Shown here piece by piece: positions 17,062 to 63,668 of a stretch of DNA of 64,000 nt. A program made the position numbers and the translations under genes. Origin of the DNA: Strigamia acuminata (taxonomy: Eukaryota; Arthropoda; Chilopoda; Geophilomorpha; Linotaeniidae); contig OX442320.1 of assembly GCA_949358305.1 (NCBI GenBank), forward strand, positions 9,812,259-9,876,258. The letters run 5' to 3'. Positions within the stretch are counted from its first letter, which is position 1; every line of letters starts with the position of its first letter. Below the pieces are notes generated by a model, which saw only the letters and a program-made list of their open reading frames with translations, did no database searches and was not told where the DNA came from.

Positions 17062-17351
17062 TTAAATTAAATCATTAAAATCGTGACTTCTCGTATGATC
17101 CGATAATCCTTTAACGCTTCTGAAATGCAACTTGCACACTCGACAAACATGGTTGCTTCCACTGTGAATAGACTTGTGTTTGGCCAAATTAGCATTACAG
17201 TCTGAGCAATGGCCGCAAACGTCGCACTTGAATTTTCCCAAATGGATGTTCTGGTGCTTATGAAGAGCGTAAGTCGTAGTAAAAAGCGTACCGCATTGAT
17301 CGCATCGAATCCGAGCCGAACTCTTACTTATAGTCCTATACGGGTACATTC
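17062..17351 (-). CDS. Alternative terminal exon ZF38, three C2H2 fingers
   Basis: Phase-1 acceptor TTTAG, 96 aa. Fingers start CDQC, CDVC and CRVC. The second is CDVCGHC, with an extra Cys at the aromatic position. Linkers are HLGKFKC and HSGSNHVC. It is the most distal tail of the array, about 33 kb from the nearest candidate common exon. Confidence 0.85.
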
Positions 17352-17391
17352 CTAAATCAAACAAAAAGAGAAAACACAACACATTAATAAC

Positions 17392-17395
17392 CAAA

Positions 17396-17426
<31 letters not shown>

Positions 17427-17430
17427 ATAT
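17392..17430. repeat. (AAAT)n microsatellite
   Basis: About nine AAAT units upstream of ZF38. Similar tracts are at about 20498-20531, 23452-23503 and 39670-39704, each in an intron just outside a finger exon. Confidence 0.9.
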
Positions 17431-17639
17431 AACGATACTGTAAATACTTCTATTTCGTATTTCGTACTTTAAAAAATAATATAAAATATAAATATAAAAT
17501 AATGATATCGAAGAGCACCCTGTCCTCGACGACTAGTACGATTTAACTGAATTAGAATGTCTTATTTCGACAAAGTGCAAAAGAAAAACAGTTACGACAT
17601 CAGTGTGGTTCATGTAAACACTCTTTAATGCGACTTACT

Positions 17640-17947
17640 TCACAATTGCTTGTTGATAAACTGCTGGACAATTTTTGTTTTGCCCACTGCGTCTTTCTTG
17701 TGAGTTCTTCGGTGAAAGTTGAGTGTTGCAACACTGTTAAACTCCTTTTGACAAATGGAGCATTCGTGTTTTTGTCTTAGTGTGGGTGGTAAGTGAGTTT
17801 GAAGGTGCTGCTGTAGAAGTGCATTGCTCTCCCAACATTTACCACAAATATTGCATTTGAATCGCTCTAAATGCACATTCATGTGGTACTGCAGTCCACT
17901 TTTCCAGCAAAATGCCTTAGGACACAAATGACAGCGAAAAGCAGCGT
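17640..17947 (-). CDS. Alternative terminal exon ZF37, three C2H2 fingers
   Basis: Acceptor TTTTCAG, phase 1, 102 aa. Fingers are CHLCPKAFCWKS.., CNICGKCWESN.. and CSICQKEFNS... A 12-residue linker (LPPTLRQKHE) separates fingers 2 and 3. The tail is Lys/Gln-rich. Confidence 0.85.
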
Positions 17948-18123
17948 CTGAAAAGAAGTACAACAAAATCATAAACAAAAATCCTTTACATTTTTTACAA
18001 ATAAAAAAATTATAAATCAACAAAAACACGAATTAATTTCAAAAACCAATGCGATTTTTTTCGTTTTTCTTTTAATCGTTCACATTTACACAAATTTGAG
18101 GAGAAAAAAAATGTAAATTGTAT

Positions 18124-18338
18124 TCATCGAATGGATCTTCCAAACGATGTGGACACAAGGCGCGATTTTCCTTGGTTGTGCGACTCCAAATGTTTGTGCA
18201 GTCGGGCCTGACTTTCGCAGCAGTAGCCGCACACGAAACACTTGTAACGTTCTTCGTGCACGTAAAAGTGGTGATTGAGCGAGGAGCGCGAGAGAAAGCG
18301 TTTTGGACACAGGTGACAAACGTGTTTTCTTACTAGCC
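18124..18338 (-). CDS. Alternative terminal exon ZF36, two C2H2 fingers
   Basis: Acceptor TCTTGCAG, phase 1, 71 aa. CHLCPKRFLSRS.. and CFVCGYCCESQ.. are joined by HEERYKC. A short Ser/Arg-rich tail ends GRSIR. Confidence 0.85.
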
Positions 18339-18475: not shown

Positions 18476-18738
18476 TCAAAGAAACACTACCAAGTAGTCG
18501 CCCATTCTCGTCGGTAGATGTTGGCGACGCATTGCGACGGGGATGTGGGTGTGTTGATGTTTTTTCAACGACGCATTGCTTTCGGAGCAGTGTCCACACA
18601 CGTCGCATTTGAACCGTTCCCTGTGCACGTTCTTGTGATTGTGCAACGACGTGCGGGACGAGAATTGTTTCGAACACACACTACATATGTATTCGACGAC
18701 TGCGGATGATTTAGTTCTTGCATCGCAGTAATAAATAC
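18476..18738 (-). CDS. Alternative terminal exon ZF35, two C2H2 fingers
   Basis: Acceptor ATTGCAG, phase 1, 87 aa. About 18 residues precede CSVCSKQFSSRT.. and CDVCGHCSESN... The linker is HRERFKC. The tail is basic, then hydrophobic (MGDYLVVFL). Confidence 0.85.
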
Positions 18739-19347: not shown

Positions 19348-19541
19348 CTAGCGGTTAAAATGCGACTGTTGATGGATCTGTAGCGACGCATTACTTTGAA
19401 AACAGTGTCCGCACAAGTTGCATTTAAAGCGCTCCAAATGCACATTGCGATGATGACTAAGCGCTTGTTTCGATCCGTACATCTTGTTACATACGTTACA
19501 CACGAAGACGGACGAAGGACGAAACGGTTTCCACGACGAGG
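19348..19541 (-). CDS. Alternative terminal exon ZF34, two C2H2 fingers
   Basis: Acceptor GATTTACAG, phase 1, 64 aa, stop TAG at 19348-19350. There is no internal Met before the fingers, so it can only be translated as a spliced tail. Fingers are CNVCNKMYGSKQ.. and CNLCGHCFQSN..; the linker is HLERFKC. Confidence 0.85.
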
Positions 19542-19880: not shown

Positions 19881-20083
19881 TTAAAATTCAAAGTACCATC
19901 GTTTGTTATTGAAATGTTCCTTTAGGTGAGCATTGCTCTGAAAACAGCGTCCACAAGTTAGGCATTTGAACCTTTGCAAATGGATGTTCCAGTGGTGAAT
20001 TAGGGCCGGATGTGACGCATAACTCTTATCGCATTCAGTGCAGAAGAAGAGTGTCGATGAAAAGCGTTTCTTCTGTGATGGAA
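19881..20083 (-). CDS. Alternative terminal exon ZF33, one complete and one degenerate finger
   Basis: Acceptor CCGTAG, phase 1, 67 aa. The first finger (CTECDKSYASHP..H..H) is complete. The second, CLTCGRCFQSNAHLKEH, reaches its first His and then reads FNNKRWYFEF to the stop, so the last zinc ligand is missing at the normal place. The extra Cys could substitute, or the finger is decaying. Confidence 0.8.
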
Positions 20084-20248: not shown

Positions 20249-20457
20249 TCAATTCCTCTTATGCCAATTCATATGGTATTTCAACGCAGCTTTGCTCTTT
20301 AAGAAGATCCCACACAAAGAACAAGGAAATCTTCCAAGATGGATGTTGGTGTGGAAGTAAAGTCCTTGTCTCGAAAGAAAACTTTTGTCGCATATCGAGC
20401 AGTCAAAAGTCCTAAGTAGAATTTGCTCTTGGGTGGTAAGTGGCGGATAAAGGGAAA
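20249..20457 (-). CDS. Alternative terminal exon ZF32, two C2H2 fingers
   Basis: Acceptor CTATACAG, phase 1, 69 aa. CSICDKSFLSRQ.. and CSLCGIFLKSK.. are joined by HLGRFPC. This is one of the few tails without the extra Cys in finger 2. AATAAA lies just downstream (20239-20244, complement). Confidence 0.85.
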
Positions 20458-20890: not shown

Positions 20891-21093
20891 TTATATGCAC
20901 CGTTCGTGTATCTTGCTGTGATCCAGCAAAGCCACTCTGCTTTGACAACACACGCCGCAAATTCGGCACTTGAAACGACCGTTATGAATGTTAATGTGGT
21001 GAGTCAGACCCGTTCTGGATCCGTAGGTCTTCGAACAGATCGAACATTGGTATACTAAATTTGCGGCTTTCTCAGCGTGGAATATTCTTCTAC
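20891..21093 (-). CDS. Alternative terminal exon ZF31, two C2H2 fingers
   Basis: Acceptor ATTGACAG, phase 1, 67 aa. CSICSKTYGSRT.. and CRICGVCCQSR.., linker HNGRFKC. Confidence 0.85.
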
Positions 21094-21305: not shown

Positions 21306-21514
21306 TTAGTTTTGATGAGTTTTATTGTGAGAACTAAGTGCCCATTTGCTTTGAAAGCAACGCCCACAATAAGCGCATTTAAAGCGTTCTTCGTGAACGT
21401 ACGAATGATGTATAAGTGCCTCGCGAGAAGAATAAGTCCTTTGACACTGGGCACATATGTAAGACTTTACATTTTTATCGCATGGGTATTTATAGAGATG
21501 TAAGGAATACGCAC
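21306..21514 (-). CDS. Alternative terminal exon ZF30, two C2H2 fingers
   Basis: Acceptor ATTCCAG, phase 1, 69 aa, stop TAA at 21306-21308. Fingers are CAQCQRTYSSRE.. and CAYCGRCFQSK..; the linker is HEERFKC. It has no upstream Met of its own and is readable only as a spliced tail. Confidence 0.85.
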
Positions 21515-21897: not shown

Positions 21898-22076
21898 TTA
21901 AAACTTTTTGCAATGCAAGTTCATGTGACGTTTCAAGTTGGCATTGCTGGCTGCACACAGACCACATTGAACACACTTGAACCGTCCAGAATGTTCATTC
22001 AGGTGATTGGACAATCCTTTTCTCGACTTGAAGACTTTGGTACAGAGTGGACAAAGATACTGAGCTGCAGATTTCT
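21898..22076 (-). CDS. Alternative terminal exon ZF29, two C2H2 fingers
   Basis: Acceptor ATTTCAG, phase 1, 59 aa, stop TAA at 21898-21900. CPLCTKVFKSRK.. and CVQCGLCAASN.., linker HSGRFKC. Confidence 0.85.
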
Positions 22077-22496: not shown

Positions 22497-22812
22497 TCAA
22501 CGTGAATGTATTAAAACATGTTTCTGCAATTGACACAAGCTTCCGCAACACCGGCCACAAATTGGACAGGTAAAGCGTTTCTTGTGAATGTCCAAATGCT
22601 GGTGCAGTCCACCACGGCTTTGGAAAGTCTTGGAACAATAGTGACAAGACAAGCGGTCGCTTGGCGATATTCGGTAATAAACTCGGTTCGACGAATCCTC
22701 GTTCTAAAAAAGGAAAATTAAAGTTGAATTTCTTTTTTTAAATTTCAAATTCAAAGAGCAAATACCAATTCACTTTCTTCTCTTTCACAATCCCAATGGT
22801 AAGATTTATTCC
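22497..22812 (-). CDS. Alternative terminal unit ZF28, two exons, two C2H2 fingers
   Basis: The finger exon 22497-22703 follows TTTTTTAG but opens in phase 0. A small exon, 22766-22812, begins after GTTTCAG in phase 1, encodes NKSYHWDCEREESEL, and ends in phase 0 at G|GTATTT. Together they restore the phase used by the other tails. Fingers are CHYCSKTFQSRG.. and CPICGRCCGSL..; the linker is HKKRFTC. Confidence 0.75.
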
Positions 22813-23071: not shown

Positions 23072-23382
23072 TCAGTAAAAATCGTGGTGCGATTTCAACT
23101 GAGCATAACCACTACAAGGATGAATGCGGTTCAAATGTCCTTCCAACCCGGAAAGTCTTGCGAAACAAGCGTTACAGTGCGAGCATTTATAGCGTTCAGA
23201 GTGTATGTTTTTGTGGTAATAAAGCATAGTCTTATTGGACACTTTTTCGTTGCACGTTGGACAGAACAAATCTCCCGACGACGAGGAAGAAGACGAAGAA
23301 GATTGTTCCAGTCTTCGTTGCGGCCCCTGACAGATGTTTTGCTTTGCTTTGTTTTGTGGCATTCTAGGCACGAATGACCGAT
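23072..23382 (-). CDS. Alternative terminal exon ZF27, two C2H2 fingers after a poly-Ser run
   Basis: Acceptor ATTTTGCAG, phase 1, 103 aa. About 40 residues, including nine Ser in a row, precede CPTCNEKVSNKT.. and CSHCNACFARL... The linker is HSERYKC. Confidence 0.85.
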
Positions 23383-23548: not shown

Positions 23549-23996
23549 TCAATTCAACGAATGTATAATGGATCTATGTCTAAACAAACTATTTCTAGAT
23601 TGGAAAAAGTGGTGACAAATATCACATTCGAATCTCCGGTCGTGCAGTCCGCCATGTTGGTACAAATCAAACGCACTCGCGAATTTACAGTCGCATTCGC
23701 TGCACGTAAACGACGTTTTAGTCCTAACGCCGACGTGTAAGAGTTCGTGCGTTTCCAAACTCAACTCGTCGTCGAAATACACGTCGCAAAAAGTACATTT
23801 GAGTAACGACGAAGTTGGCAAACGAGTCAATTGAAACTCGGTGCAGTTAGGAACAGATTCTTCACACTGCGAAACGAGAGAAAAAACGAGAATGGAGGAG
23901 AAAGACACAGACAAAAATAAATCGTATATCCATTTAAAATTTATTTATTTACCCATCTCATTAATGATTTAATTCCAGTTGATGAATGAGAGAAAC
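23549..23996 (-). CDS. Alternative terminal unit ZF26, two exons, three C2H2 fingers
   Basis: Exon 23549-23866 (after TTTCGCAG) opens in phase 0 and carries CTFCDVYFDDE.., CSECDCKFASA.. and CDICHHFFQSR... A small exon, 23953-23996, starts in phase 1 after CTTGCAG (G-FSHSSTGIKSLMRW) and ends in phase 0 at GG|GTAAAT. This is the same correction as in ZF28. The finger order differs from most tails: the RFEC finger is third. Confidence 0.75.
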
Positions 23997-25018: not shown

Positions 25019-25332
25019 CTAATCGATCGTGTGGGCCAATGCCACGTGAGCTTTGTATTCGTTTTTAGTCTGAAAATAAACACCGCAAGCAGAACAGTAT
25101 TTTTGTTCATGCAAAATCACGTGTCTCTCGAGAGCCGATTTGCTCTGACAACAAGCATTACAAACTTGACACTTGAAGCGTGTAGTATGCACTTGCAGGT
25201 GATTGGTCAAAGCGTGTCTGGAACCGTAAATTCTCGGACAAAACGGACAACAATGACGATTGGACATGCTCAACTGTGACCGGCGACCGGGGCGACGTCC
25301 GCGGCGACGTATCAACTCAACTTCCGGTGGAC
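25019..25332 (-). CDS. Alternative terminal exon ZF25, AT-hook-like stretch and three C2H2 fingers
   Basis: Acceptor CTTTCAG, phase 1, 104 aa. RRRGRRPGRR near codon 10 resembles an AT-hook. Fingers are CPFCPRIYGSRH.., CQVCNACCQSK.. and CSACGVYFQTK..; the linker is HTTRFKC. Confidence 0.85.
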
Positions 25333-25515: not shown

Positions 25516-25787
25516 TCACACTTGTTTGTGATAAACACGCAAGTGCAACGACAGAGTGTACGACGACTTGTATCTACGATAGCATTGTGGACAGTGAAAC
25601 CACGACTGATTCTTATCGTGAGTTTTCTCGTGTCTTTGCAACGACTTAGTCGATTCTGCGCAGAAGCCGCACAGCGCGCACCGAAAAAGCCCTTTGTGCA
25701 CATTCTGGTGTCGTCTCAGTGTAAACCCGTTGGAGTACGGTCGTTTACAGATCCTGCAAACATAGCTGCACCGCCCCGACTCGCTAC
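25516..25787 (-). CDS. Alternative terminal exon ZF24, three C2H2 fingers
   Basis: Acceptor TTTTACAG, phase 1, 90 aa. CRICKRPYSNG.., CALCGFCAEST.. and CPQCYRRYKSS... The linker is HKGLFRC, then DKNQSWFH. Confidence 0.85.
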
Positions 25788-26028: not shown

Positions 26029-26207
26029 TTACGTCCAATTGCGATGCGTGGTCAAGTGTTTGCGCAGAACTGCATTGCTCGCGCAACACTGCCCACATTC
26101 CTGACATTTAAATCGTTCCAAGTGCACATTTCTGTGATGACCCAAAGCATCCCAACTCTTGTAAACTCGTGGACAAACGGGACAGCGATAGAGCGGGGAT
26201 TCCAAAC
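26029..26207 (-). CDS. Alternative terminal exon ZF23, two C2H2 fingers
   Basis: Acceptor TGTTTGCAG, phase 1, 59 aa. CPVCPRVYKSWD.. and CQECGQCCASN.., linker HLERFKC. It ends a few residues after the last His (RNWT). Confidence 0.85.
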
Positions 26208-26503: not shown

Positions 26504-26766
26504 CTACTCCGAATCCCCCTGTTGCAAAATAAAAACAATAGACACATGAAAAAGAAGAGAGAGATATAGAGAGAGAAAAATGAAGCTAAAACGTACTGGA
26601 TTTGCAGGATGCTGTTTTCTCATATGGTTTTTGAGAATATACGGAGTGTGTGCGCAATAACCACAGTGTGGACACTGGAATCGCTTAAAATGGACGTTGA
26701 GATGGAGCCTCAAAGAGTCCGCGTGCCAATATCGTTTCGCACAAAACGGGCAGAAAGCGGGCAAAC
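26504..26766 (-). CDS. Alternative terminal exon ZF22, two C2H2 fingers
   Basis: Acceptor TTGTTTAG, phase 1. CPFCAKRYWHAD.. and CPHCGYCAHTP.., linker HFKRFQC. The reading frame continues about 38 residues as a hydrophobic stretch to a stop at 26504. A donor-like CCA|GTACGT near 26596 and an acceptor TGCAACAG near 26520 would remove that stretch and leave ..NP-GDSE. Which form is used cannot be told. Confidence 0.8.
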
Positions 26767-26975: not shown

Positions 26976-27145
26976 TCATTTATGACGACATGTCACATGA
27001 CGATTTAGGGAATAAGTAGATCGATAGTAGTTATCGGGAATACAAAGCGGACATTTGTAAAGTTGAAAATGAATTTTTTTATGATGTTTTAGTGAGATTT
27101 TGCTTCTGAATTCTTTTTGACAATCGAAGCAAACGTAAATCGGAC
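26976..27145 (-). CDS. Alternative terminal exon ZF21, two fingers, long second finger
   Basis: Acceptor TTTCTAG, phase 1, 56 aa, stop TGA at 26976-26978. The first finger is CFDCQKEFRSK... The second (CPLCIPDNYYRSTYSLNRH..) has about two extra residues between Cys and His pairs, as in ZF19 and ZF20, so it is an older copy of that subfamily. The linker is HFQLYKC. Confidence 0.85.
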
Positions 27146-27344: not shown

Positions 27345-27529
27345 TTAATCGAAATAAATGACTTTGGTATGGCCCGCAATGTGTCGTTGGAGATGATAAG
27401 CAGTTCGAAAGTATTTATCGGAATTGCAAAGCGGACATTTGAACCGTTTTAAATGAATGTTTTCGTGACGACTCAGCGATTTTCTAGTTTTGAACTGTTT
27501 GAAACAAACGACGCAAACATACACCGCAT
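27345..27529 (-). CDS. Alternative terminal exon ZF20, two fingers, recent duplicate of ZF19
   Basis: Acceptor TTTCTAG, phase 1, 61 aa. CVVCFKQFKTRK.. and CPLCNSDKYFRTAYHLQRH.. with C-x2-C-x14-H spacing. It is nearly identical to ZF19, including flanking intron bases (CTAGAAATAAACAAAA on the plus strand). Confidence 0.9.
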
Positions 27530-27782: not shown

Positions 27783-27967
27783 TTAATCGATATTATAGAC
27801 TTTGCTATGGCCCGCAATGTGTCGTTGCAGGTGATAAGCAGTTCGAAAGTATTTATCGGAATTGCAATGCGGACATTTGAAACGTTTTAAATGAATATTC
27901 TCATGTCGTCTCAGCGATTCTTTAGTTTTGAACTGTTTGAAACAAACACCGCAAACATACACAGCAT
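27783..27967 (-). CDS. Alternative terminal exon ZF19, two fingers, recent duplicate of ZF20
   Basis: Acceptor TTTCTAG, phase 1, 61 aa. CGVCFKQFKTKE.. and CPHCNSDKYFRTAYHLQRH... It differs from ZF20 mainly near the first-finger helix (KESLRRH against RKSLSRH) and in the last residues. Confidence 0.9.
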
Positions 27968-28194: not shown

Positions 28195-28376
28195 TCATAC
28201 TAAGTACTGCTTGTGATGCGTTTTGAAGTGTCTTTTCAAATGGGTATTGGACTGTAAACAAGTCCCACAAACTGGACACTGGTAGGTCGTTGAATGCGTG
28301 TTCATGTGATATTTAAAAGACATTTTATTCCAATATATTTTACCGCAAACATGGCACGTCAGAATAGGAAGTTCAC
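28195..28376 (-). CDS. Alternative terminal exon ZF18, two C2H2 fingers
   Basis: Acceptor TGTTTAG, phase 1, 60 aa. CHVCGKIYWNKM.. and CPVCGTCLQSN.., linker HSTTYQC. Confidence 0.85.
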
Positions 28377-28686: not shown

Positions 28687-28856
28687 TTATTTGAGCGCCC
28701 TTTTTTTGTGCACCGCAATGTGTTCTTCCAGATTGAACTGCGTCCTAGAGCAGTAGCCACAAAACGGACACTGATATTTTTTCTCGTGCACATTCATGTG
28801 TAGTCGCATAGTCGGTTTATTCCGATAAACTTTCGAACAAATCGAACATCTGATAC
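28687..28856 (-). CDS. Alternative terminal exon ZF17, two C2H2 fingers
   Basis: Acceptor TTTGTAG, phase 1, 56 aa. Only three residues precede CSICSKVYRNKP..; the second finger is CPFCGYCSRTQ... The linker is HEKKYQC. AATAAA lies 40 bases past the stop (28646-28651, complement). Confidence 0.85.
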
Positions 28857-29073: not shown

Positions 29074-29231
29074 TCAAAGCGAGTGAATTCTCATGTGTCG
29101 TCTCAGGTGAGATGACGACTGCGCACATTGGCCACATTCGGGACATCGGTAGCGCTGCAGGTGGACGTTCAAATGTTGTCTTATGGACGACTCCGAGTGA
29201 TAAACTTTAGAGCAGAACTCACAGATAAAGT
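29074..29231 (-). CDS. Alternative terminal exon ZF16, two C2H2 fingers, shortest two-finger tail
   Basis: Acceptor TTTTGTAG, phase 1, 52 aa. CEFCSKVYHSES.. and CPECGQCAQSS.., linker HLQRYRC. The stop follows two residues after the last His. Confidence 0.85.
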
Positions 29232-29349: not shown

Positions 29350-29522
29350 TTAGTATTTCGACTTCTCGTGTGTCCCGATATGTTCTGTCAAATCGAACGG
29401 TGTTCTAGCACAATAACCGCACTGTGGACATTTGAACCGTTGCAAATGCACATTCATGTGAAGCATTAGAGATGCTTTATGGCGATAATGTTTAAAGCAA
29501 ACTGGGCAGGTCACGCCAGCGC
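29350..29522 (-). CDS. Alternative terminal exon ZF15, two C2H2 fingers
   Basis: Acceptor TCTTGTAG, phase 1, 57 aa. CPVCFKHYRHKA.. and CPQCGYCARTP.., linker HLQRFKC. The second finger closely resembles those of ZF17 and ZF22 (GYC-x-RTP/HTP/RTQ). Confidence 0.85.
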
Positions 29523-29693: not shown

Positions 29694-29911
29694 TTACTTG
29701 AAATTCGCACGAATTTGTCGTTTTTCCTGCCGTTTCTCGTGAGTCTGTTTATGTTTCAGAAGACTAGAATTACTCACACAGCACAATCCACAAATCAAAC
29801 ACTTATATCGTTCCAAATGGATGTTTCTGTGGCCATTCAATGCGTCCACACTGCCATATGTCCGCGGACATAGAGGGCACTTGTATCTGCGCACAGGAAT
29901 ACCGAAGAAGC
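29694..29911 (-). CDS. Alternative terminal exon ZF14, two C2H2 fingers
   Basis: Acceptor CATTGCAG, phase 1, 72 aa. CPLCPRTYGSVD.. and CLICGLCCVSN.., linker HLERYKC. The C-terminal tail is basic (KRQEKRQIR). Confidence 0.85.
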
Positions 29912-30031: not shown

Positions 30032-30270
30032 TCAATGTAAAGTCATGTGCATGTCGAACAATATCCTATTACGAAACGAGCACTTGCAAATGGCGCAACC
30101 GAAATTATGGGTCAACATGTGCCGTCTTAAGACCGCGTTACACGCGCAACATAAACCACACTCGAGACATTTGTATTTTCCCAGATGGATGTTGTTATGC
30201 GCAGAAAGGGCGGCCATTGATTTAAACATCTTTGGACACTGATTACATGAATAATGCTGCACACCGGAAT
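30032..30270 (-). CDS. Alternative terminal exon ZF13, three C2H2 fingers
   Basis: Acceptor TGTTTCAG, phase 1, 79 aa. CNQCPKMFKSMA.., CLECGLCCACN.. and CAICKCSFRNR... The last zinc-binding His is the final residue before the stop. Confidence 0.85.
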
Positions 30271-30766: not shown

Positions 30767-31026
30767 CTACATTTGACGCAAAATATGCACACGTTGAACA
30801 TGGCGTTTTAACTGTCCTGTCATAGCGAAAGAAAGATGACAGAAATTACATTTTTCCGTGTGTTTTAGGGCTAAATGGCGCTTTAGTGTGAGGTCAAACG
30901 AGAAACAGCATCCACAAGTGTGACATTTGTGTGTTTGCAGATGAAGATCCATGTGACTTGCAAGTCCACAAGCCGTTTTCAATCTTTTAAAACACAGTGA
31001 ACAGACGTAATTTGTTTCAGATTTAC
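30767..31026 (-). CDS. Alternative terminal exon ZF12, three C2H2 fingers
   Basis: Acceptor TTTTTCAG, phase 1, 86 aa. CSLCFKRLKTAC.., CHTCGCCFSFD.. and CNFCHLSFAMT... The linker HLQTHKC lacks the usual aromatic. Confidence 0.85.
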
Positions 31027-31235: not shown

Positions 31236-31501
31236 TCAAAAGAGGTCGGTACCATGCACGATGTAGCTATGATTTTTAAGCATTTTGATATTAGTGAAAC
31301 AGTTGTCACAGAACGGACAAATAAAATCGTGTCTTGTTCTCAAATGACGATCAATATCGGTTTGAAATGCACAACACAAGCCACAATCCGGGCACTTGTA
31401 CTTCTCCAAATGAATGTTCTTATGCCCAACAAGTCCTGACGGAGATCTAAACACTTTCGGACACTGTGCACATGCGAAATAATTTCGAGTGGCAGATTTA
31501 T
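31236..31501 (-). CDS. Alternative terminal exon ZF11, three C2H2 fingers
   Basis: Acceptor TTTTTCAG, phase 1, 88 aa. CAQCPKVFRSPS.., CPDCGLCCAFQ.. and CPFCDNCFTNI... The linker is HLEKYKC. Confidence 0.85.
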
Positions 31502-32470: not shown

Positions 32471-32775
32471 TTACACAACGTCGCCCATTAAATTGGAATG
32501 TTTGAGCACGTGTTTGTGATAGTCGACCTGGTTCTTGAATTTCTGAGAACACATTTTGCAAATCAACCACGGCTTGTGACTTTGCATGTGCAACACGAGA
32601 TGCGCCTTGCTCTCCTTGCAACTGCCACACTCTCTGCACTTGAACCTCTCCGAGTGCACATTCTTGTGCAGATTCAACGATTTCCTTCTACTAAACACTC
32701 TGTCACACTGCAAACACGGAAACAGTTCAACCGGTAGTTCTTCGTCGCCTGCCATTATTGAACCAAGATGGCGAC
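32471..32775 (-). CDS. Alternative terminal exon ZF10, three C2H2 fingers
   Basis: Acceptor CTTTGCAG, phase 1, 101 aa. CLQCDRVFSRRK.., CRECGSCKESK.. and CKMCSQKFKNQ..; the linker is HSERFKC. Confidence 0.85.
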
Positions 32776-46936: not shown

Positions 46937-47137
46937 TATGTGGCAGCGATCCAAGATGGCGGCCAAAATGTGCAATTTGACGGGAAAACTCGTTACACGG
47001 AGATTTAAACGACCTAAAAAGGTCGTTTATTTTCAGCTCGTTTAAACCCATTTAAACGAGGTTTTAAACAAAAATCTCGTTTAAAAGTTCGTGCAAACGG
47101 GTTTAAACGACCGTTTATCAGTTATTGAATGCGCCTA

Positions 47138-48413: not shown

Positions 48414-48743
48414 CTAAATGCAGTTTTTACATTGTATGTTTACTGATGATGTGCACACACCGCACACATATTTGTTACATGAATTGCAGACAGAACTCGT
48501 TTTATTTCCGCAGTTACCGGCCTGGCACGAACGTCTTTTGCCACCTTTTTCTTTCGGTGTACTGGCCGCTGCACTCATAGTGGTGGGGTCAGTTTGTGTC
48601 CATTTACATAATTTTCGAACTAATTTCAAAATAAAATCCCGACACGGAATATTATCATTAGTTAAGATGATCGGATGATCGGTTTTTAAGAAAAAAAAGT
48701 ATAAAGTCCACGCCTTCATTCTAAGGACATTAGGTACGTTCAA
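48414..48743 (-). pseudogene. piggyBac-like transposase C-terminal fragment
   Basis: The last 80 codons read ..CRDFILKLVRKLCKWTQT, a linker, then a Cys-rich module (RRSCQAGNCGNK, VCNSCNKYVCGVC, IQCKNCI) to the stop. This matches the layout of the C-terminal zinc domain of piggyBac/PGBD transposases. The catalytic DDD domain is absent, so it is a remnant. Confidence 0.55.
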
Positions 48744-49221: not shown

Positions 49222-49593
49222 TCATTCTGGTAGTTCTGGTATTTCTTCTTCTCCTGGTTCTATGGGTACCAATTTGGTCATTTCTGCTACTCTCATCTCT
49301 TTCTTAGTTTTTCGCCGAGCTGCTTGAGGTGGATTACGAACTGGAACCAAGTTCGCCTCGTCGTCTTCTTCATCCTCCCCCGACGATGCAGCTCGATAAT
49401 TTGGCTCCAAATTACGTGTATTCCGCGTTCCTGATCTCAGTGGGGTAAGTGGGTGGGTGTTTGTAGATGTTCTTATCGCCGCTCCTCCCAGTGCTTGTCT
49501 AAACTCAGGTGGAGTAGTTCCCAAGACCGACAGCCGTAATGCTCTATCTTCTGCGACACCTACAAGTAACATCAATCGTTCCAGCGATTTCAC
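49222..49593 (-). CDS. Unrecognised acidic ORF inside a repeat
   Basis: 123 codons starting MKSLERLMLLVGVAED and ending EEEIPELPE. The middle is acidic (SGEDEEDDEA), with a basic patch (ARRKTKKEMR). I recognise no domain. It starts inside the inverted arm of the surrounding repeat, so it may be transposon-derived. Confidence 0.3.
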   Translation of the reverse strand: MKSLERLMLLVGVAEDRALRLSVLGTTPPEFRQALGGAAIRTSTNTHPLTPLRSGTRNTRNLEPNYRAASSGEDEEDDEANLVPVRNPPQAARRKTKKEMRVAEMTKLVPIEPGEEEIPELPE

Positions 49594-49647
49594 GTCAGAA
49601 GCGGTCGTTAGAAAATATCACAATCCGGAAGAAATAATAGTTTAGAG

Positions 49648-50754: not shown

Positions 50755-50994
50755 CTGCACTAGTTCCAGGAACAGCGGGTATTGCAGCCGAAGCGACAAC
50801 GGAAGAAGCACCAGATGAAGTAGATTGTGTGGCAGAAGGAACAGCAACGAGAACCGGCGGCAGCAGTGCCTGGGTGAGTTGAGGTGGTAGTGGCGGGCCA
50901 GCGACATGACTCATAGACGGACTTTCGGTCGTCGTTATATCGTCGTAAGGTTCATCTTTGACGGGTATAACTTCGGGCGAGGATTCAATTAAAG
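50755..50994 (-). CDS. Candidate common internal exon of the factor locus (phase 1-1)
   Basis: Acceptor GTTTGCAG and donor GCAG|GTTAGT, 240 nt. The encoded stretch starts LIESSPEVIPVKDEPYDDI; V-K-D-E-P is a classic sumoylation-type site found in linkers of BTB factors. It continues with Ser/Thr/Ala/Pro-rich low-complexity sequence and ends GTSA-G. Both borders are phase 1, so it can be inserted before any of the downstream tails. It is the last in-frame internal exon before the finger array apart from the 9-nt candidate. Confidence 0.7.
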
Positions 50995-56181: not shown

Positions 56182-56669
56182 TCAGTCCAGCGTGAGTACT
56201 TCGATCCATGGCGGCCTATTATCGTGTTCTTCTTCGATTTCTTCTTGTGGAAGCGGAACTTCGGGTCCCTTGTTTAAAGACGGATTCTGCATAGCTGGTA
56301 ATTGTTGCCCGACTCCTGCACGATTTGCGCGCGCGGCATCTTCGTCGTCCTCGTCTTCGTCCTCGTCCTCCGAAGACCCTTCCATCAACTCCACTTTTGG
56401 AATTCGAGACGAACAAGGCTCCGAATCGCCGGATTCCTCGTGAATTGGTGGTCGAATTGGTTCGAAAGTGATCGAAGAGGACGGCGGAAAGGTTGGGTTC
56501 ACCATCTTTTGATTCGATTCGTGGTTCTCTTCGTCTTCGTCGTCTTCGTCCTGACTCGAGTCCGACGTGCTTTCCGAATAAACCTCGCTGATGGCCAACT
56601 TCCTATTGTACGCTTCGTTCTTCTGCAGATCTTCTGAATCGGCAGGCCTCGGCCCCAGTGTCGTAGCAC
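56182..56669 (-). CDS. Alternative terminal exon, acidic tail without DNA-binding domain
   Basis: Acceptor GCATTAG, phase 1, 162 aa, stop TGA. It has two strongly acidic runs (SSQDEDDEDEENHES and SSEDEDEDEDDEDA) and ends PPWIEVLTLD. No zinc finger or HTH is present. AATAAA lies about 140 bases downstream (near 56036-56041, complement). It could produce an isoform that shares the common N-terminus but does not bind DNA, acting as a dimer partner or activator. If it were internal, the only donor-like site (GAA|GTACTC) would be in the wrong phase. Confidence 0.7.
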
Positions 56670-57535: not shown

Positions 57536-57972
57536 TTACGTTAAGCATATTTCTACAGATTTGAAGTGTTCTAATAATATGGATATTAAAATTTCTAAAA
57601 AGCCTCTGCTCCAAATGGACTTACTAATCGGAAAAAACTTGGCAAACCCCTTGAAAATATCTTTGTTACCCTGCGGACTTGACCAAGTATTCAACGGCGG
57701 AGGAGTCCATCCAGCAGGCAACGATGGTGTTTCCGAATCCGCCCACTCGGGTGGTTTGGCCATGCTGGCCACCTTCTTCAAGTAAACCTTCAGCGTCGGA
57801 TAAGGGATGCCAAACTGACGACTCGCTTTGGCCAACGACATTTGATGCGTCACAATCGCTTTTATGGCACTGAACATATCTTCCTGTTTCCAAGACCTTT
57901 GGCGCCCACGCGGCTTCACATTCATGCGATTCATAAACTCGTCTCCTTGTAGCAAAGGCAGCGCCACTTCCA
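57536..57972 (-). CDS. Alternative terminal exon Psq5, Pipsqueak HTH
   Basis: 145 aa. Near codon 20 is a basic GRQ, then the Psq-type helix-turn-helix: W-K-Q-E-D-M-F-S-A-I-K.., ..SLAKASRQFGIPYPTLKVYLKKV. Psq domains bind DNA (GAGA-type sites in Drosophila Pipsqueak). The acceptor (TGCAAAAAAAG) is weak but in phase 1. It lies only 76 nt after the common exon 58049-58165. Confidence 0.75.
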
Positions 57973-58048
57973 CTTTTTTTGCAAAACAACACAAATTCCA
58001 AATTAACAAACAAACAACTCTTTCTTGCCAACCACTAATCTTCCCAAC

Positions 58049-58165
58049 CTGCACTCAACGTGCTAGCGGACAACCCTTCCTCGTTGGCAGGACTCATCGG
58101 ACTAAAAGTAGTGTTGGACGTGCGGGGAGTGGACGTGGAACCGGTCTCGTTGTCAGGGGGCAGAG
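58049..58165 (-). CDS. Candidate common internal exon of the factor locus (phase 1-1)
   Basis: Acceptor TTTCGTCTAG and donor GCAG|GTTGGG, 117 nt. It encodes LPPDNETGSTSTPRTSN and continues Ser/Thr/Pro-rich (FSPMSPANEEG) to STLSA-G. No domain; a flexible linker. Both borders are phase 1, like the exon at 50755-50994. It lies downstream of four Psq tails, so those tails would have to branch from a common exon further right. Confidence 0.65.
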
Positions 58166-58788: not shown

Positions 58789-58792
58789 AATA

Positions 58793-59475: not shown

Positions 59476-59750
59476 CTATGCCAACGACAACAATTCATCA
59501 TCAATCCGGCCACCAAAAACACCTCGCCTCCCGCCGAGTCTTTTACCTGGCTGATAATCCTCTTTCTCCATAGGTTTCAACGATTTCCGAACACGGCTCA
59601 TATAATAATAGAAAGTAGGAACGGGAATGCAGAAATGATCGCACGCTTGTTGGTAAGTCATTCGACGGGCGAAGACGGCCTTGAGGGCCGTGAACATGGA
59701 CTCCTTCGTCCAGATTTTGTAGGTGGGCAAAGTGGGCCAATTGCTGCCAC
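59476..59750 (-). CDS. Alternative terminal exon Psq4, Pipsqueak HTH
   Basis: Acceptor AATGTTACAG, phase 1, 91 aa. The HTH starts KIWTKESMFTALKAV and ends PVPTFYYYMSRVRKSL. A basic Gly-rich segment (GKRLGGRRGVFGGR) follows, resembling the RGRP region after Psq3's HTH, then DDELLSLA. Confidence 0.85.
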
Positions 59751-60667
59751 CTGTAACATTCATAGTGGCCAACGGATGGTCAACAAAGGGTTAAATTATA
59801 TCAAAAAGATTTTTTTTCACAAAAAAAAAATAAAAAACTGTCCCACAAAAATTTAAAAAAATAATAATTGACTTTTGCCTCACAGAAGCTGCTTGATGTA
59901 GTTTTTCGTGTCAAAAAATGTTAAATTTAAAAAAAAAATTACTTTTATGCACATTAAATGTATTATATTGCATAGATACACAATTGCAAGCTAGAATTCT
60001 CACCACAAGGTAAAAAAGGGAGGGAAGGGGTAAGGGGAGACATTTTTTCTTTCTTTTTTTGGTATTTTGCTTTTTTGGTAAATATACAAAAGCCATTAAA
60101 AAATAGTATTCAATTTACTCCACAATTTTTTTTGATTCACTTCTAAAAACTGAAATAATAATAAAAAAAAAAAAGAAAAAAAAACTAAAAAAAAAAAAAA
60201 TATTTTTTTTCTGTCCGCTACAAATTACAAATACACATTTGCTTTTTCTAATAAATATCACAGAAGGAAACACAAAACAGTCTAGTTTCACTAAATACTA
60301 GTTTTATATTCTCCAAAATCAAGAGGGAAAAAAATCAGATTTTGTCCACACAAAAATTAGAAATTAAAAATAAAAATATCTAACATCTGCATATCACTAT
60401 CAACACTGCATATATATATATATGTTTTTCATATGCTTGAAAAAGCAGCACATTTCTTTTCTTTGCATATTCAGATTAAATAGTTGAATATATATCTTTA
60501 TATCGATACTAAAATTGTCTCTACACACAAACATGGATGGTTTTGGCATTTAATTTTTTTGGCATATGAAGAATCAATGATATTATGACAAACATAAACT
60601 CCAAAATAAATATATTTCGTCCACAAAATCAAAAATTAAAAAAAAAAAAAAATTAAAAAAAATTAAT
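59751..60667. other. Intronic AT-rich gap between Psq3 and Psq4
   Basis: No exon. Long A/T runs and a (TA)n at 60410-60422. This is probably the 3'UTR of Psq3 and the intron before Psq4. Confidence 0.5.
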
Positions 60668-61359
60668 TCAATTTTTGTCGCTCCCATCCTCATTCTCCTC
60701 CTCATCATTCAACTTGACCAGAAACAACTCGGGATTGCTCTCCACAACGACCGATTCAGCATTTTCACAACACACCTCGTCCTTCACGTCCTCAGCGTGA
60801 ACCGCCGCGACCGCCGCGTTATTCGCGCAGGCCGCATCGGGCTCTCCGACCGGCAGCGGCGGCGCCTGTTGCGCGAAAGCGAGCGGGCCAGCCATCAGTT
60901 TGGACGCTCCGTCCCCACCACAACCCCTCGGCGGGACTTGGTCCCGATAAACCACCCTGTTAATCGCTTCGTCAATCACCTCGTCGGACCAAAAGCCGCA
61001 GTAAGTCTTTGTGGGACGACCACGACGTCCGGAAAAATACTGAATGCGACCCTCCATCGACTGGCCCACCGTTCCTGTTGGGGGTATTAACATTTTGTGA
61101 GAACAACTCAAACCAATTTGACTTTTCCAACCTGTTGGAGGCCCCGCACTGCTTTTCTCATAGGGTTTCAGGATTTGTTTCACTCGCTTCGTGTAGAAAA
61201 AGAGGGTCGGGTAAGGTATGTTGGACGAGCGCGACGCTTCGATTATCGACAGACCGCGGGTGAAAATGCTGCGAATCGTCTGCACCATTGTTTCTTCGTG
61301 CCACGACTTGCACGGACCAGTGCGCGTGGGTGTGCGCATCCACACTCCAGGCTGAACTC
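60668..61359 (-). CDS. Alternative terminal exon Psq3, Pipsqueak HTH with GRP motif
   Basis: Acceptor CATTTTCAG, phase 1, 230 aa if read through. The HTH (KSWHEETMVQTIRSIFT.. to PTLFFYTKRVKQIL) is followed by a Tyr/Phe-Ser-Gly and AT-hook-like FSGRRGRPTKTY, a helix (FWSDEVIDEAINRVV) and an Ala/Pro-rich then acidic end (NDEEENEDGSDKN). A 57-nt in-frame stretch (61075-61131) is bounded by CCAACAG|GTTGGA and CCAACAG|GA, so it may be a facultative intron. The encoded joint would be PPTG-TVGQ. Confidence 0.85.
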
Positions 61360-61745
61360 CTGAAAATGGCCACAAGAAAATGGCCACAGAATGCAAAGGT
61401 TTTTTTTTCAGAAATTTTTTTTTTTTCGAAAATAATAATTTTAAAAAATAAAAAATTGTTATAGAGGCAACGCTAAACGAAACAATGAAAGAAAGAAAAA
61501 AAAAAAAAAAAAAAACCGAGAAAAAAGTGAAAAAATCAAAAATCCAATGTTAGATCAATGTAAAAAAAGGCTGCTTGATGTTACACGACAAATAAAACAG
61601 AAAAAGGGTTAAAAATACCGTAGTGGGGTTTTTTTTTAAAAAAAAATCCTAAACCAATCAACTAATTAAATTAACCAAAAAAAAAAATTTAAAAAAAAAA
61701 TTAAATTAAAAAAAAAATTATTTTTTTTGTTTTTTTTTTTCATTT

Positions 61746-62194
61746 TCATTCGTCAACAACAGTCAAATCGCCATGTTTCTTTAAGAAATAGAGAAGCCAA
61801 CGATGCTGGAACGTCTCGTTCCTAGCCAATTTCTCCGCCCTATCATAACTGGACTTGCGCACGATTCCGATCGCGAAATCCGCCACCTGACTCTTGTTAA
61901 TCGAGCCGCCATTTTTACACGCATTTCGCACATGCGCCACGATCGTCCGCTCCTCTTCCCGAGTCAAAAACACATCCACACGAAACTTTCTGTAGTTTTT
62001 CCCACGGATTCCATCCACGCGGTACTGCAGAGTCGACTCCGGCACCCGGTACTGCCTCGCCGCTAACGGCACCGACGAATGACCCGCAATCACCGTCTCC
62101 ATGGCTTTCATCATGTCATTCAGACTCCACCGTTTGTACTTCATATCTTTACGACTAGGTCGGTAATCTCCTGATTGATTGTAGTGCAGGGACC
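61746..62194 (-). CDS. Alternative terminal exon Psq2, Pipsqueak HTH plus transposase-like domain
   Basis: Acceptor AAACTAG, phase 1, 149 aa. The HTH KRWSLNDMMKAMETV.. to PESTLQYRVDGI is followed by FLTREEERTIVAHVRNAC and KSQVADFAIGIV, which resemble the start of the second (CENP-B-like) DNA-binding region of pogo/Tigger and Jerky proteins. It ends LLYFLKKHGDLTVVDE. This supports the known kinship of Psq HTHs with pogo transposases. Confidence 0.85.
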
Positions 62195-63426
62195 CTAGTT
62201 TAACAAGTGCCCGCACTTATTAAGAAAGCAGCCAAGAAAAAGAAGAAGACAAGGAAAAATCAAATCAAATTTTCTCTTTTTTTCTTTTAAAAACTCCATC
62301 AATCAAAAATAATTTTTAAAAACAAAAAAACCACGACCAAAGCGAGCTGCTTGATGCACCACGACAGCATCACTAAACCCCGACCAATCAACGTTTTTAA
62401 AAAAATCAAATTAAAAAAAAACAAAAAAAAAACAAAATGGAAGTCAAAATATCATCAAAAGCACAAGTCAAATTTATTTATCAACGACTACAACATACAT
62501 TTTTTTTAATATTACAAAAAAAAAATAATAAAAAAAAAATAATTAGTAAAAAAAGATAATAATAATAAAAAAGTTAAAATTAAATACAGCGAGTCCCCTA
62601 CACACGAACATCGAGTTTCGCGGCAGCGCATAATCTAGTTCGCGTGTCCAGCAGTAGCTGCATTCAAAAACTAAAATATTTTGTGTTTTACTTCAATTTT
62701 AAACCAAAAATGACATCATTTCCTGTTTATTCGCGGGTCTAGCAGTAGCTGCATTCAAAAATTAAAATATTTTGTGTTTTACTTCAATTTTAAACCAAAA
62801 ATGACATCATTTCCTGTTTAAACTTAAACTTAAAATACACTTAAACTAAAATTGTTATTTTTATTTTTGAATGCAGCTACTGTAATTTCTCATTAAAAAC
62901 ATTTTCTAATTTGGATTAACTCATTCGTATGTAAAGGACTAACTGTATAATTTTTTTTTTTTTTTTTAGAATTTTATATTTTTTCGGTATAAAAATCATT
63001 TCTCCACTACCTCAAATTTCTTCTCACTTTTAATATGTTCCTTTTAAAAAAGACGACGGGGCGGGAAATAAATGCACCTAAATTTATATTTTAAATTATC
63101 TCAAATTTAAAATTTAAAAAAAAAAATTCTACATATAAATAGAAACACTAATTTATTCATTAAACATTGTTCTAAACATCCTAAATACACACACCTGTGA
63201 ATCTCCTTTCACGTTAAACACCGCTCACTAACAAAAACAGTCAAAAACGCTTTTCAAAAATTTTTCAAAAAATCCAAAATGGAGGCGCACTGATCAACAT
63301 CAACCAGACCAAACAAAAAAAAAATAAAATAAAATATATAAAAAAAAAATAATAAAAAAATATAAAAAAATTAGCTTATATTTGCCAATATGTCACATTG
63401 CACATATATCTGCACTCTGTACTCAT
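62195..63426. other. Intronic gap between Psq1 and Psq2
   Basis: AT-rich. It contains one repeat element (62651-62882); no exon is visible. Confidence 0.5.
62651..62882. mobile_element. Element with GCAGTAGCTGCATTCAAAAA ends and a 91-bp tandem duplication
   Basis: The left end is CAGTAGCTGCATTCAAAAA and the right end TTTTTGAATGCAGCTACTG is its complement. The left 91 bp are duplicated in tandem (units from about 62641 and 62732). Single ends of this family are also seen near 33127, 24567 and 47170. Confidence 0.65.
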
Positions 63427-63668
63427 CTATCCGACCGAAAAATGACTGTTTCGCGTGGAGGTGGAAGCGGAAGCAGAATGATAGCCCTTAAAATAATTCA
63501 TCTTATAGCTGCTCGTTATGCCCAACTTTTGCGTACGTGTCCAGACGGTCATTGTGGGAATGCCATAGACGCGAGAGGCTAGCTTGATGGACATCCGTCC
63601 AGCCCGAATCTCCTCTATGGCCAGCTCCATCTGACTCTCTGTCCAGCGTTTGTTGCGACGAACCGTAT
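63427..63668 (-). CDS. Alternative terminal exon Psq1, Pipsqueak HTH
   Basis: Acceptor TTGCAACAG, phase 1, 80 aa. Right after the splice site is the HTH RRNKRWTESQMELAIEEI.. to GIPTMTVWTRTQKLGI, then a short Ser/Thr-rich tail (SASASTSTRNS). It is the most 5' tail visible. Confidence 0.85.

What the first reader, a model, noticed from the sequence alone, without database searches (positions are those of the whole stretch)
17062..63668. One locus with at least 45 phase-matched alternative C-terminal exons of several DNA-binding classes
Forty-five minus-strand units ending in a stop all take the same split-codon phase. In 43, two bases follow the AG and the frame then stays open to the stop; for two C2H2 tails a small extra exon corrects the phase. 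I checked exon length modulo 3 for each. Random exons would share one phase only about a third of the time each. The tails comprise five Psq HTH, one acidic, one FLYWCH-like and 38 C2H2 exons. Drosophila lola has about 20 tails and mod(mdg4) about 30, each mostly of one finger type. A locus mixing Psq, FLYWCH and C2H2 tails behind one stem would be a larger and more diverse combinatorial factor than those known to me.
Basis: partly seen in the sequence, partly recalled or inferred. Interest (0 to 1): 0.95.

Follow-up and report, generated by a model that had tools for sequence, protein, structure and literature searches.

The report
Centipede gene with ~46 swappable tails
A centipede gene appears to join one shared protein-assembly front end to any of about 46 different DNA-reading ends, like the fruit-fly gene lola; it is one of nine such front ends found in this genome, though the gene's one apparent FLYWCH end is most likely a jumping gene.

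Summary
The core observation holds. The predicted stem lies 4-6 kb right of the window: a TTK-type BTB exon, a linker exon and a 142-nt last exon whose donor leaves one base (G), i.e. phase 1. The rule repeats at three paralogous stems (16 of 16 psq tails) and in public tick, spider and millipede proteins (22 of 22 junction residues are of the GNN-coded kind).

Corrections. The FLYWCH "tail" lies inside an inverted-repeat element with dispersed relatives: most likely a transposon. Three further candidates of mine are dispersed repeats too. Supported tails: 38 C2H2, 7 psq (two right of the window), 1 acidic. Size is no record: Nasonia lola has over 180 alternates, Apis 58 (PMC5000498).

New: the genome, apparently of a centipede near Strigamia, has nine such stems; sister loci carry FLYWCH, BEN, Tc5-type HTH and psq tails. 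No transcript was available.

The parts
63427..63668 (-). psq-HTH tail, phase-1 acceptor at 63668
   Evidence: Pfam HTH_psq 34.4 bits; acceptor best, score 4.0
61746..62170 (-). psq-HTH plus weak Tc5/CENPB-type HTH tail, acceptor 62170
   Evidence: HTH_psq 21.0 bits, HTH_Tnp_Tc5 17.8 bits (below cut-off); acceptor best, score 0.7
60668..61359 (-). psq-HTH tail, acceptor 61359
   Evidence: HTH_psq 15.3 bits, below cut-off; acceptor best, 6.0
59476..59750 (-). psq-HTH tail, acceptor 59750
   Evidence: HTH_psq 21.7 bits; acceptor best, 1.6
57536..57945 (-). psq-HTH tail, phase-1 acceptor 57945 (weak, not the top-scoring AG)
   Evidence: HTH_psq 40.9 bits; acceptor -0.2, a phase-0 AG at 58048 scores 0.9
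58049..58165 (-). possible internal hub exon, 117 nt, phase 1 to 1
   Evidence: acceptor 0.1, donor 1.1: weak
56182..56633 (-). acidic tail, acceptor 56633
   Evidence: phase 1 but weak (-0.1); no other match of its own in the genome (two alignments of the joined query, at C4:2632327 and C4:2643135, reach into its last 40 residues)
50755..50994 (-). possible internal hub exon, 240 nt, phase 1 to 1, with a linker-like SPEVIPVKDEP stretch; could also be a BTB-less start exon because the frame is open upstream and holds ATGs
   Evidence: acceptor 0.1, donor 3.9
39773..39936 (-). C2H2 tail 1
   Evidence: phase-1 acceptor best, 5.0; zf-C2H2
39385..39614 (-). C2H2 tail 2
   Evidence: phase-1 acceptor best, 6.5
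38984..39252 (-). C2H2 tail 3
   Evidence: phase-1 acceptor best, 6.6
38031..38359 (-). C2H2 tail 4
   Evidence: phase-1 acceptor best, 5.9; zf-C2H2
37652..37863 (-). C2H2 tail 5
   Evidence: phase-1 acceptor best, 8.5
37159..37445 (-). C2H2 tail 6
   Evidence: phase-1 acceptor best, 6.0
36734..36936 (-). C2H2 tail 7
   Evidence: phase-1 acceptor best, 7.1
35342..35664 (-). C2H2 tail 8 (divergent fingers)
   Evidence: phase-1 acceptor best, 3.8; only zf-C2H2_jaz below cut-off
33845..34191 (-). C2H2 tail 9
   Evidence: phase-1 acceptor best, 6.2
32471..32775 (-). C2H2 tail 10
   Evidence: phase-1 acceptor best, 7.7
31236..31501 (-). C2H2 tail 11
   Evidence: phase-1 acceptor best, 5.8; zf-C2H2
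30767..31026 (-). C2H2 tail 12
   Evidence: phase-1 acceptor best, 9.4
30032..30270 (-). C2H2 tail 13
   Evidence: phase-1 acceptor best, 5.6
29694..29911 (-). C2H2 tail 14
   Evidence: phase-1 acceptor best, 7.7
29350..29522 (-). C2H2 tail 15
   Evidence: phase-1 acceptor best, 8.5
29074..29231 (-). C2H2 tail 16
   Evidence: phase-1 acceptor best, 4.1
28687..28856 (-). C2H2 tail 17
   Evidence: phase-1 acceptor best, 7.4
28195..28376 (-). C2H2 tail 18
   Evidence: phase-1 acceptor best, 8.1
27783..27967 (-). C2H2 tail 19 (recent duplicate of tail 20, dN/dS about 0.29)
   Evidence: phase-1 acceptor best, 4.9
27345..27529 (-). C2H2 tail 20
   Evidence: phase-1 acceptor best, 5.7; zf-C2H2
26976..27145 (-). 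C2H2 tail 21
   Evidence: phase-1 acceptor best, 5.9
26504..26766 (-). C2H2 tail 22
   Evidence: phase-1 acceptor best, 4.5
26029..26207 (-). C2H2 tail 23
   Evidence: phase-1 acceptor best, 4.0; relatives in this array, at the C8 stem and generic fingers; zf-C2H2
25516..25787 (-). C2H2 tail 24
   Evidence: phase-1 acceptor best, 8.8
25019..25332 (-). C2H2 tail 25
   Evidence: phase-1 acceptor best, 3.2
23549..23866 (-). C2H2 tail 26; best acceptor is phase 0
   Evidence: 7.4 at 23866, phase 0
23953..23996 (-). possible 44-nt exon (phase 1 to 0) that would bring tail 26 into phase
   Evidence: acceptor 6.9, donor 0.9
23072..23382 (-). C2H2 tail 27
   Evidence: phase-1 acceptor best, 3.6; zf-C2H2
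22497..22703 (-). C2H2 tail 28; best acceptor is phase 0 and no correcting exon was found
   Evidence: 5.1 at 22703
21898..22076 (-). C2H2 tail 29
   Evidence: phase-1 acceptor best, 8.2
21306..21514 (-). C2H2 tail 30
   Evidence: phase-1 acceptor best, 7.9
20891..21093 (-). C2H2 tail 31
   Evidence: phase-1 acceptor best, 3.9
20249..20457 (-). C2H2 tail 32
   Evidence: phase-1 acceptor best, 4.9; zf-C2H2
19881..20083 (-). C2H2 tail 33; phase-1 acceptor 20083 (0.3) is second to a phase-0 AG at 20072 (2.2)
19348..19541 (-). C2H2 tail 34
   Evidence: phase-1 acceptor best, 2.9
18476..18738 (-). C2H2 tail 35
   Evidence: phase-1 acceptor best, 3.9; zf-C2H2
18124..18338 (-). C2H2 tail 36
   Evidence: phase-1 acceptor best, 10.8
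17640..17947 (-). C2H2 tail 37
   Evidence: phase-1 acceptor best, 6.1
17062..17351 (-). C2H2 tail 38 (last)
   Evidence: phase-1 acceptor best, 5.5
45836..46938 (.). NOT part of the gene product by my reading: inverted-repeat-bounded element holding the FLYWCH-like ORF (46214-46672)
   Evidence: 29-nt terminal inverted repeats 97% complementary; dispersed relatives; FLYWCH 21.5 bits against a cut-off of 23.6
43462..43983 (-). NOT a tail: dispersed repeat ORF (WRKY/GCM-like by eye) with an ATG of its own near the start
   Evidence: 80, 77 and 71% aa to the nearest other places, 60 matches including itself; DNA similarity of about 74-84% over hundreds of bases to the fetched copies, in one running past the stop
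48223..48664 (-). NOT a tail: fragment of a transposase-like repeat (Cys-rich)
   Evidence: 84-86% DNA to four other places over the whole stretch; 71% aa within 632-aa frames
49222..49617 (-). NOT a tail: fragment related to repeated 1565-1600-aa frames (LTR-type by length only)
   Evidence: up to 51% aa

Best explanation
The region is the 3' part of one BTB transcription-factor gene, on the minus strand, of an arthropod that is probably a centipede close to Strigamia. The stem lies right of the window in L011: a TTK-type BTB exon (L011 6113-5472), a linker exon (5401-5297) and a hub exon (4370-4229) whose donor leaves one base, G. Alternative splicing (cis; trans not excluded) joins this hub, possibly through the optional symmetric exons 58049-58165 and 50755-50994, to one of about 46 last exons: 7 psq-type HTH (two of them in L011), 1 acidic and 38 C2H2, each with its own stop. 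Each protein would share an oligomerising BTB and differ in its DNA-binding end. Shown: exons, domains, phases, conservation of the split codon. Inferred: that the junctions are used, oligomerisation and DNA binding. The FLYWCH unit is a transposon insertion in the intron.
For: Stem found where predicted, hub donor phase 1. Best acceptor phase 1 in 45 of 50 units, 42 of the 46 that are not repeats; plus-strand control 45 of 140. Same rule at paralogous stems: 16 of 16 psq tails (C4 5, C10 9, neighbour 2), with a phase 0 to 1 hub-like exon at each of these three. The Strigamia protein T1JFA7 joins the C4-type stem and hub directly to the psq tail whose acceptor I had predicted at L052:5215 (match starts at 5214). 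Public proteins of four tick genera, one spider and one millipede part after the common stem at D, E, G, A or V, the residues of GNN codons, in 22 of 22 (tick orthologues are not independent). 39 of 50 units (37 of the 46 non-repeat units) have no Met between acceptor and domain, 28 of 50 none anywhere upstream in the frame. 27 of 37 gaps between neighbouring C2H2 units are under 400 bp, and between 40000 and 17000 I find no ATG-bearing exon of 60 nt or more with a phase-1 donor above 3.5 other than at 37388 (inside tail 6) and 16862 (beyond the last tail). No second BTB was found among the tails, in two searches that scored their best 150 candidates. 25 of the genome's 32 psq domains over cut-off lie downstream of such stems on the same strand.
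Against: No transcript was available. Tandem duplicates inherit phase, so equal phase alone does not prove a shared stem. Three of 38 C2H2 units and one of 7 psq units prefer another phase; only one of two correcting exons was found. Poly(A) signals are not enriched: AATAAA behind 26 of 50 units against 35 of 50 on the opposite strand. Five of the 7 psq acceptors are weak (-1.8 to 1.6). Three of the four repeat-derived units also show phase 1, so phase can agree by chance. At the stem C9:9612 no hub-like exon was found, and besides one clear C2H2 unit with phase 1 a doubtful 32-residue one has phase 2. The frame at 50755-51112 is open upstream and holds ATGs, so the C2H2 array could have a BTB-less start.
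Confidence: 0.87

Rival explanations
1. Two transcription units: the BTB stem serves only the psq tails near it (57-65 kb), while the C2H2 array has its own promoter and starts at the 50755-51112 exon, making BTB-less proteins.
For: The frame upstream of 50994 is open and has ATGs; the 50994 acceptor scores only 0.1 while its donor scores 3.9 and is phase 1. A 10-kb stretch with several repeats separates it from the array.
Against: By eye the exon carries the SPEVI-VK-type linker motif seen in BTB stems of this genome. The closest stem paralogue (C8, 87%) has a related C2H2 doublet 1.5-1.8 kb downstream on its strand (41 and 36% identity), and the Strigamia protein T1ILI6 has such fingers behind a BTB. 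A phase-1 donor fits both uses.
Confidence: 0.08
2. The C2H2 units are a tandem array of small independent genes, each with its own promoter, and the equal phase is inherited from the first copy.
For: Tandem duplication is plain (for example 27529 and 27967, 84% aa). Duplicates inherit phase.
Against: 27 of 37 gaps are under 400 bp; most units lack a Met before the fingers; no ATG-bearing exon with a good phase-1 donor lies between the units (donors above 3.5 only at 37388, inside a tail, and 16862, beyond the array); unrelated psq units share the phase.
Confidence: 0.03
3. The FLYWCH-like ORF at 46214-46672 is nevertheless a used tail, an exonised transposon.
For: Frame intact for 152 codons with a phase-1 AG at 46644 scoring 3.0. 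A clean FLYWCH tail exists at the sister locus C4 (acceptor phase 1, FLYWCH 47.8 bits).
Against: It sits wholly inside an element whose 29-nt inverted repeats still match at 97% (a second pair of arms, 37 nt, at 81%), which suggests a fairly young insertion; most full-length protein relatives are dispersed and their matches start near its own Met; similarity to other copies runs across the supposed acceptor. No clear target-site duplication was seen.
Confidence: 0.1

Closest known systems
lola (longitudinals lacking), Drosophila, Nasonia, Apis
   Same: TTK-type BTB stem with many alternative 3' exons; in Nasonia one hub exon with over 180 alternates, one per 1400 bases (median), in Apis 58 (PMC5000498, passages read); 17 of 20 Drosophila isoforms have C2H2 fingers (PMC11426971, passages read)
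   Different: Here 7 psq tails share the locus; the BTB tree does not place this stem with the one lola-like sequence included; use of junctions unproven
mod(mdg4), Diptera and Lepidoptera
   Same: BTB stem with many alternative 3' ends: 31 in Drosophila, 9 to 41 in six species (PMC4667647, passages read)
   Different: Most of its tails are FLYWCH and in several species partly on the opposite strand; here all supported tails are on one strand and the only FLYWCH unit is in a transposon-like element
pipsqueak (psq), insects
   Same: TTK-type BTB with psq-type HTH; a beetle protein that I take for psq (P0052, named bric-a-brac 2-like by its source) ends in a psq domain
   Different: No C2H2 tails seen with it; my search with the 61359 tail found no relative at E <= 1e-3
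Tick TTK-like genes (Amblyomma LOC144126116, Haemaphysalis LOC144169907, Dermacentor, Ixodes)
   Same: Public isoforms with one stem and different tails, several with C2H2, parting at D, E, G, A or V
   Different: Among the isoforms seen only C2H2 tails or tails without a listed DNA-binding domain
Millipede CHUAL_002398 (Chamberlinius)
   Same: One BTB stem with three products: psq, BEN and a BEN-related tail; junction residues E, G, G
   Different: Its nearest counterpart by tail (36% over 81 aa) and by tree (86/78) is the divergent neighbour locus rather than the window's
Strigamia maritima T1JFA7 and T1ILI6
   Same: Predicted proteins with nearly identical BTB domains (98% and 91%) joined to a psq tail and a C2H2 tail
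   Different: They correspond to the C4 and C8 paralogues, not to this locus

Membership tests
TTK-type BTB transcription factor | BTB domain | tested here: met
   PF00651 at C9:9882021-9882311, 97.9 bits
TTK-type BTB transcription factor | N-terminal FxLRWN motif | tested here: met
   MGTQQFCLRWNN in L011; definition from PMC11426971
TTK-type BTB transcription factor | hexamer formation | not testable with these tools
   -
lola-type hub-and-tails locus | one 5' stem with many alternative 3' coding exons of one phase | tested here: met
   hub donor phase 1; best acceptor phase 1 in 42 of 46 non-repeat units
lola-type hub-and-tails locus | transcripts joining stem to the tails | not testable with these tools
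   no RNA data for this species
lola-type hub-and-tails locus | orthology of the stem to lola | tested here: inconclusive
   BTB tree mostly unresolved; the single lola-like row (Aedes, so named by me) is a long branch
lola-type hub-and-tails locus | tails nearly all C2H2 | tested here: not met
   38 C2H2 but also 7 psq and 1 acidic
mod(mdg4) | FLYWCH tails | tested here: not met
   single FLYWCH-like ORF, below cut-off, inside an inverted-repeat element
mod(mdg4) | tails on both strands (in several species) | tested here: not met
   psq matches and C2H2-doublet matches within the locus are all minus-strand
pipsqueak | BTB plus psq HTH in one product | tested here: inconclusive
   psq tails with phase-1 acceptors share the locus; junction not shown

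The most novel reading that the evidence does not exclude
The G-ended phase-1 hub of TTK-type BTB genes is an ancestral arthropod capture port, kept since before the split of chelicerates and mandibulates, into which DNA-binding domains of quite different origin (C2H2, psq, Tc5/CENPB-type HTH, BEN, FLYWCH), several of them typical of transposases, have been plugged again and again as alternative last exons. In this centipede nine such loci field several of these classes, two or more of them mixed within single loci, and the FLYWCH transposon in the window shows how a new tail could be acquired.
Probability: 0.3. Interest if true: 0.75.

Novelty: new variant of a known kind. Interest (0 to 1): 0.55.

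Why it matters
It extends the lola-type 'one stem, many tails' design to a myriapod and shows it as a family of nine stems, with one locus mixing two unrelated DNA-binding classes (psq and C2H2) and sister loci mixing others (psq with FLYWCH; BEN with Tc5-type HTH and psq). The Strigamia genome paper stresses that this lineage makes Dscam diversity mainly by paralogues where insects splice (PMC4244043, passages read); here the same lineage would use massive alternative 3' exons for a transcription factor. The conserved split codon makes the origin of lola, psq and mod(mdg4) from a mixed ancestor testable.

Tried and rejected
Poly(A) signals as evidence for separate last exons: negative (26 of 50 against 35 of 50 on the opposite strand). 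Protein-database searches with the 61359 psq tail and the 43462 ORF: 43 and 115 candidates, none at E <= 1e-3. BTB tree of 34 rows: 15 of 31 inner branches open, so no orthology to lola, psq or others is claimed; P0029 was dropped because the motif cut failed. dN/dS: of the 14 closest pairs printed (648 computed), 12 are saturated at synonymous sites, 63668/64816 has dS 2.76 and only 27529/27967 (dN/dS 0.29) is usable; 'pN below pS in 648 of 648' is biased by protein-guided alignment and not used. Four Limulus proteins were dropped from the junction count because they came from more than one gene. PDB search with the neighbour's Cys-rich tail: no match. Rfam and tRNA scans of the window: none. 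Literature: eight answered searches (two of them returned nothing, and for 61, 72 and 73 only the first 12 of 374, 17 and 50 papers were listed) showed, in titles and abstracts, no paper on mixed psq/C2H2 tails or on these loci in myriapods; most subscription papers are not held. PMC11426971 (passages) does survey which domains go with TTK-type BTBs in proteomes including one myriapod order. Considered and dropped: my own candidate tails at 43462, 48414 and 49222 after they proved to be dispersed repeats.

Full report
What was checked. The window is C9:9812259-9876258 of a 237.5-Mb genome in 157 contigs.

The stem. Right of the window, on the minus strand, L011 holds a BTB exon starting MGTQQFCLRWNN (L011 6113-5472, donor 4.9, phase 0), a linker exon (5401-5297, acceptor 1.9, donor 3.6, phase 0 to 0) and a 142-nt exon (4370-4229; acceptor 5.1, donor 4.7) that ends one base into a codon. 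The FxLRWN motif marks a TTK-type BTB (definition in PMC11426971, passages read). Two further psq tails lie between stem and window (L011 1479-1142 and 816-440; acceptor scores -1.8 and 0.9, both phase 1).

The phase test. Each AG between the upstream in-frame stop and the start of the domain was scored with a matrix written from recalled general splice-site frequencies. The top-scoring AG is phase 1 in 45 of 50 units (35 of 38 C2H2; 6 of 7 psq; acidic 1 of 1; repeats 3 of 4). Plus-strand ORFs of the same span give 49, 45 and 46 for phases 0, 1 and 2 among 140 with an AG; the best acceptors score a median 5.3 in units against 0.6 there. Minus-strand non-unit ORFs give 23, 17 and 38 among 78; the excess of phase 2 probably reflects overlap with units in another frame. 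Exceptions among the units are 23866 and 22703 (strong, phase 0), 20072 (phase 0 slightly better), 57945 (weak) and the repeat at 43462. A 44-nt exon can correct 23866; none was found for 22703. Because the C2H2 units are tandem copies, the independent support comes from elsewhere: at three paralogous stems 16 of 16 psq tails have phase 1 as best, those stems have S/T/P-rich hub-like exons of phase 0 to 1 (214, 142 and 157 nt; none was found at a fourth stem, C9:9612), and the Strigamia protein T1JFA7 runs from the C4-type hub into the tail at the acceptor predicted here. At C9:9612 one clear C2H2 unit has phase 1 and a doubtful 32-residue one phase 2; the distant 31% stem C4:9513 has no unit in 20 kb. 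In public proteins of Amblyomma (6), Haemaphysalis (6), Dermacentor (3), Ixodes (2), a spider (2) and a millipede (3) the residue after the common stem is D, E, G, A or V in 22 of 22, as expected if the stem gives the first base G; the codons themselves were not seen, and tick orthologues are not independent.

Why a shared stem rather than an array of genes. 39 of 50 units have no Met between acceptor and domain and 28 of 50 none anywhere upstream in the frame; 27 of 37 C2H2 gaps are shorter than 400 bp; between 40000 and 17000 no ATG-bearing exon with a phase-1 donor above 3.5 lies outside a tail before the array ends; no other BTB was found between the tails, in searches that scored the best 150 of 321 and of 195 candidates. 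The weakest link is how the C2H2 array is reached: the proposed hub at 50755-50994 has a fair donor (3.9) but a poor acceptor (0.1), and its frame is open upstream with ATGs. A BTB-less start there is possible and does not exclude the joined form.

What is not a tail. The FLYWCH-like ORF (46214-46672) lies inside a 1.1-kb element with 29-nt terminal inverted repeats, 97% complementary. Its protein has 58 matches in the genome, itself included, seven of them with identical scores in 410- or 639-residue frames, and DNA relatives of its ends are dispersed (which scored 40 of 1719 candidates). The ORF at 43462-43983 has 60 matches, itself included, up to 80% identical, with DNA similarity in one copy running past the stop. 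The Cys-rich ORF at 48414 is 84-86% identical in DNA to four other places and matches within 632-residue frames; the type (piggyBac-like) is my recollection of the motif, not a call. The ORF at 49222 matches repeated 1565-1600-residue frames at up to 51%. These were set aside. The acidic unit at 56182 has no other match of its own in the genome, but its acceptor is weak.

The family. A six-frame search finds nine stems 72-100% identical to this one, the next being 31%. Of 32 psq domains over the Pfam cut-off in the genome, 25 lie downstream of these stems on the same strand. The C4 locus has five psq tails and a clean FLYWCH tail (47.8 bits; acceptor 4113, phase 1). The divergent neighbour, 3.6 kb away on the plus strand, has a BEN tail (29.3 bits, acceptor phase 1), a Tc5-type HTH tail (31.2 bits; the best AG upstream of the domain is phase 1, a better AG inside the domain is phase 0), two psq tails, a Cys-rich tail and an acidic tail, the last two with phase-1 best acceptors. 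The BEN tail is related to that of millipede P0033 (36% over 81 residues), and in the tree the neighbour groups with that millipede gene and C9:9612 at 86/78 support. C2H2 doublets of the window's type occur here and at the C8 stem; the other matches are weaker and look like generic fingers (which scored 150 of 572 candidates). At the C10 stem a Tc5-type ORF with its own Met and no phase-1 best acceptor looks like an inserted transposon.

Which animal. Two stems match Strigamia maritima proteins at 98% and 91% in the BTB, but only 88% and 66% over the longer stem, so the genome is probably that of a centipede near Strigamia. This is inference; no name was given.

Known or new. Nasonia lola has over 180 alternates around one hub exon and Apis 58 (PMC5000498, passages read), so the size is not exceptional. 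The design is that of lola. The mixture of psq and C2H2 tails in one locus, and of more classes at sister loci, was not seen in the listings of eight literature searches, though public proteins of a millipede gene already show psq and BEN behind one stem. Hence a new variant of a known kind.

Noticed in passing
L011/L012, window-scale 73674-80484 (+): A second, divergently transcribed TTK-type BTB gene with BEN, Tc5-type HTH, two psq, Cys-rich and acidic tails, each with a phase-1 acceptor upstream of the domain.
   Followed up: partly
L052 (C4:4752900-4762299): Sister locus with five psq tails and a FLYWCH tail (47.8 bits) behind one BTB stem; Strigamia T1JFA7 is its counterpart.
   Followed up: partly
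L053 (C10:7610200-7616900): Sister locus with nine psq tails in 4 kb, all with phase-1 best acceptors; the Tc5-type ORF at 1168-1854 looks like an inserted transposon.
   Followed up: partly
G000 C3:14.90-15.22 Mb and C10:4.84-5.14 Mb: Large clusters of BTB-containing frames (often about 570 and 330 aa) in the BTB search, apparently a separate gene-family expansion.
   Followed up: no
45836-46938: Element with 97% matching terminal inverted repeats and repeated TAAGAGCAACA-type subterminal motifs around a FLYWCH-like ORF.
   Followed up: partly
10161-16330 (-): RING finger and USP8-interacting domain on separate exons, an RNF41/Nrdp1-like gene just beyond the last tail (the name is recalled).
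   Followed up: no
652-8149 (+): Amiloride-sensitive sodium channel and carboxylesterase exons.
   Followed up: no
L013, window-scale 86883-89616 (+): Frames that look like sulfite oxidase by eye.
   Followed up: no
G000 C3:20828978-20830159 (+): Two strong psq domains in one 590-aa frame, the best psq matches of the genome and not near a BTB stem found.
   Followed up: no
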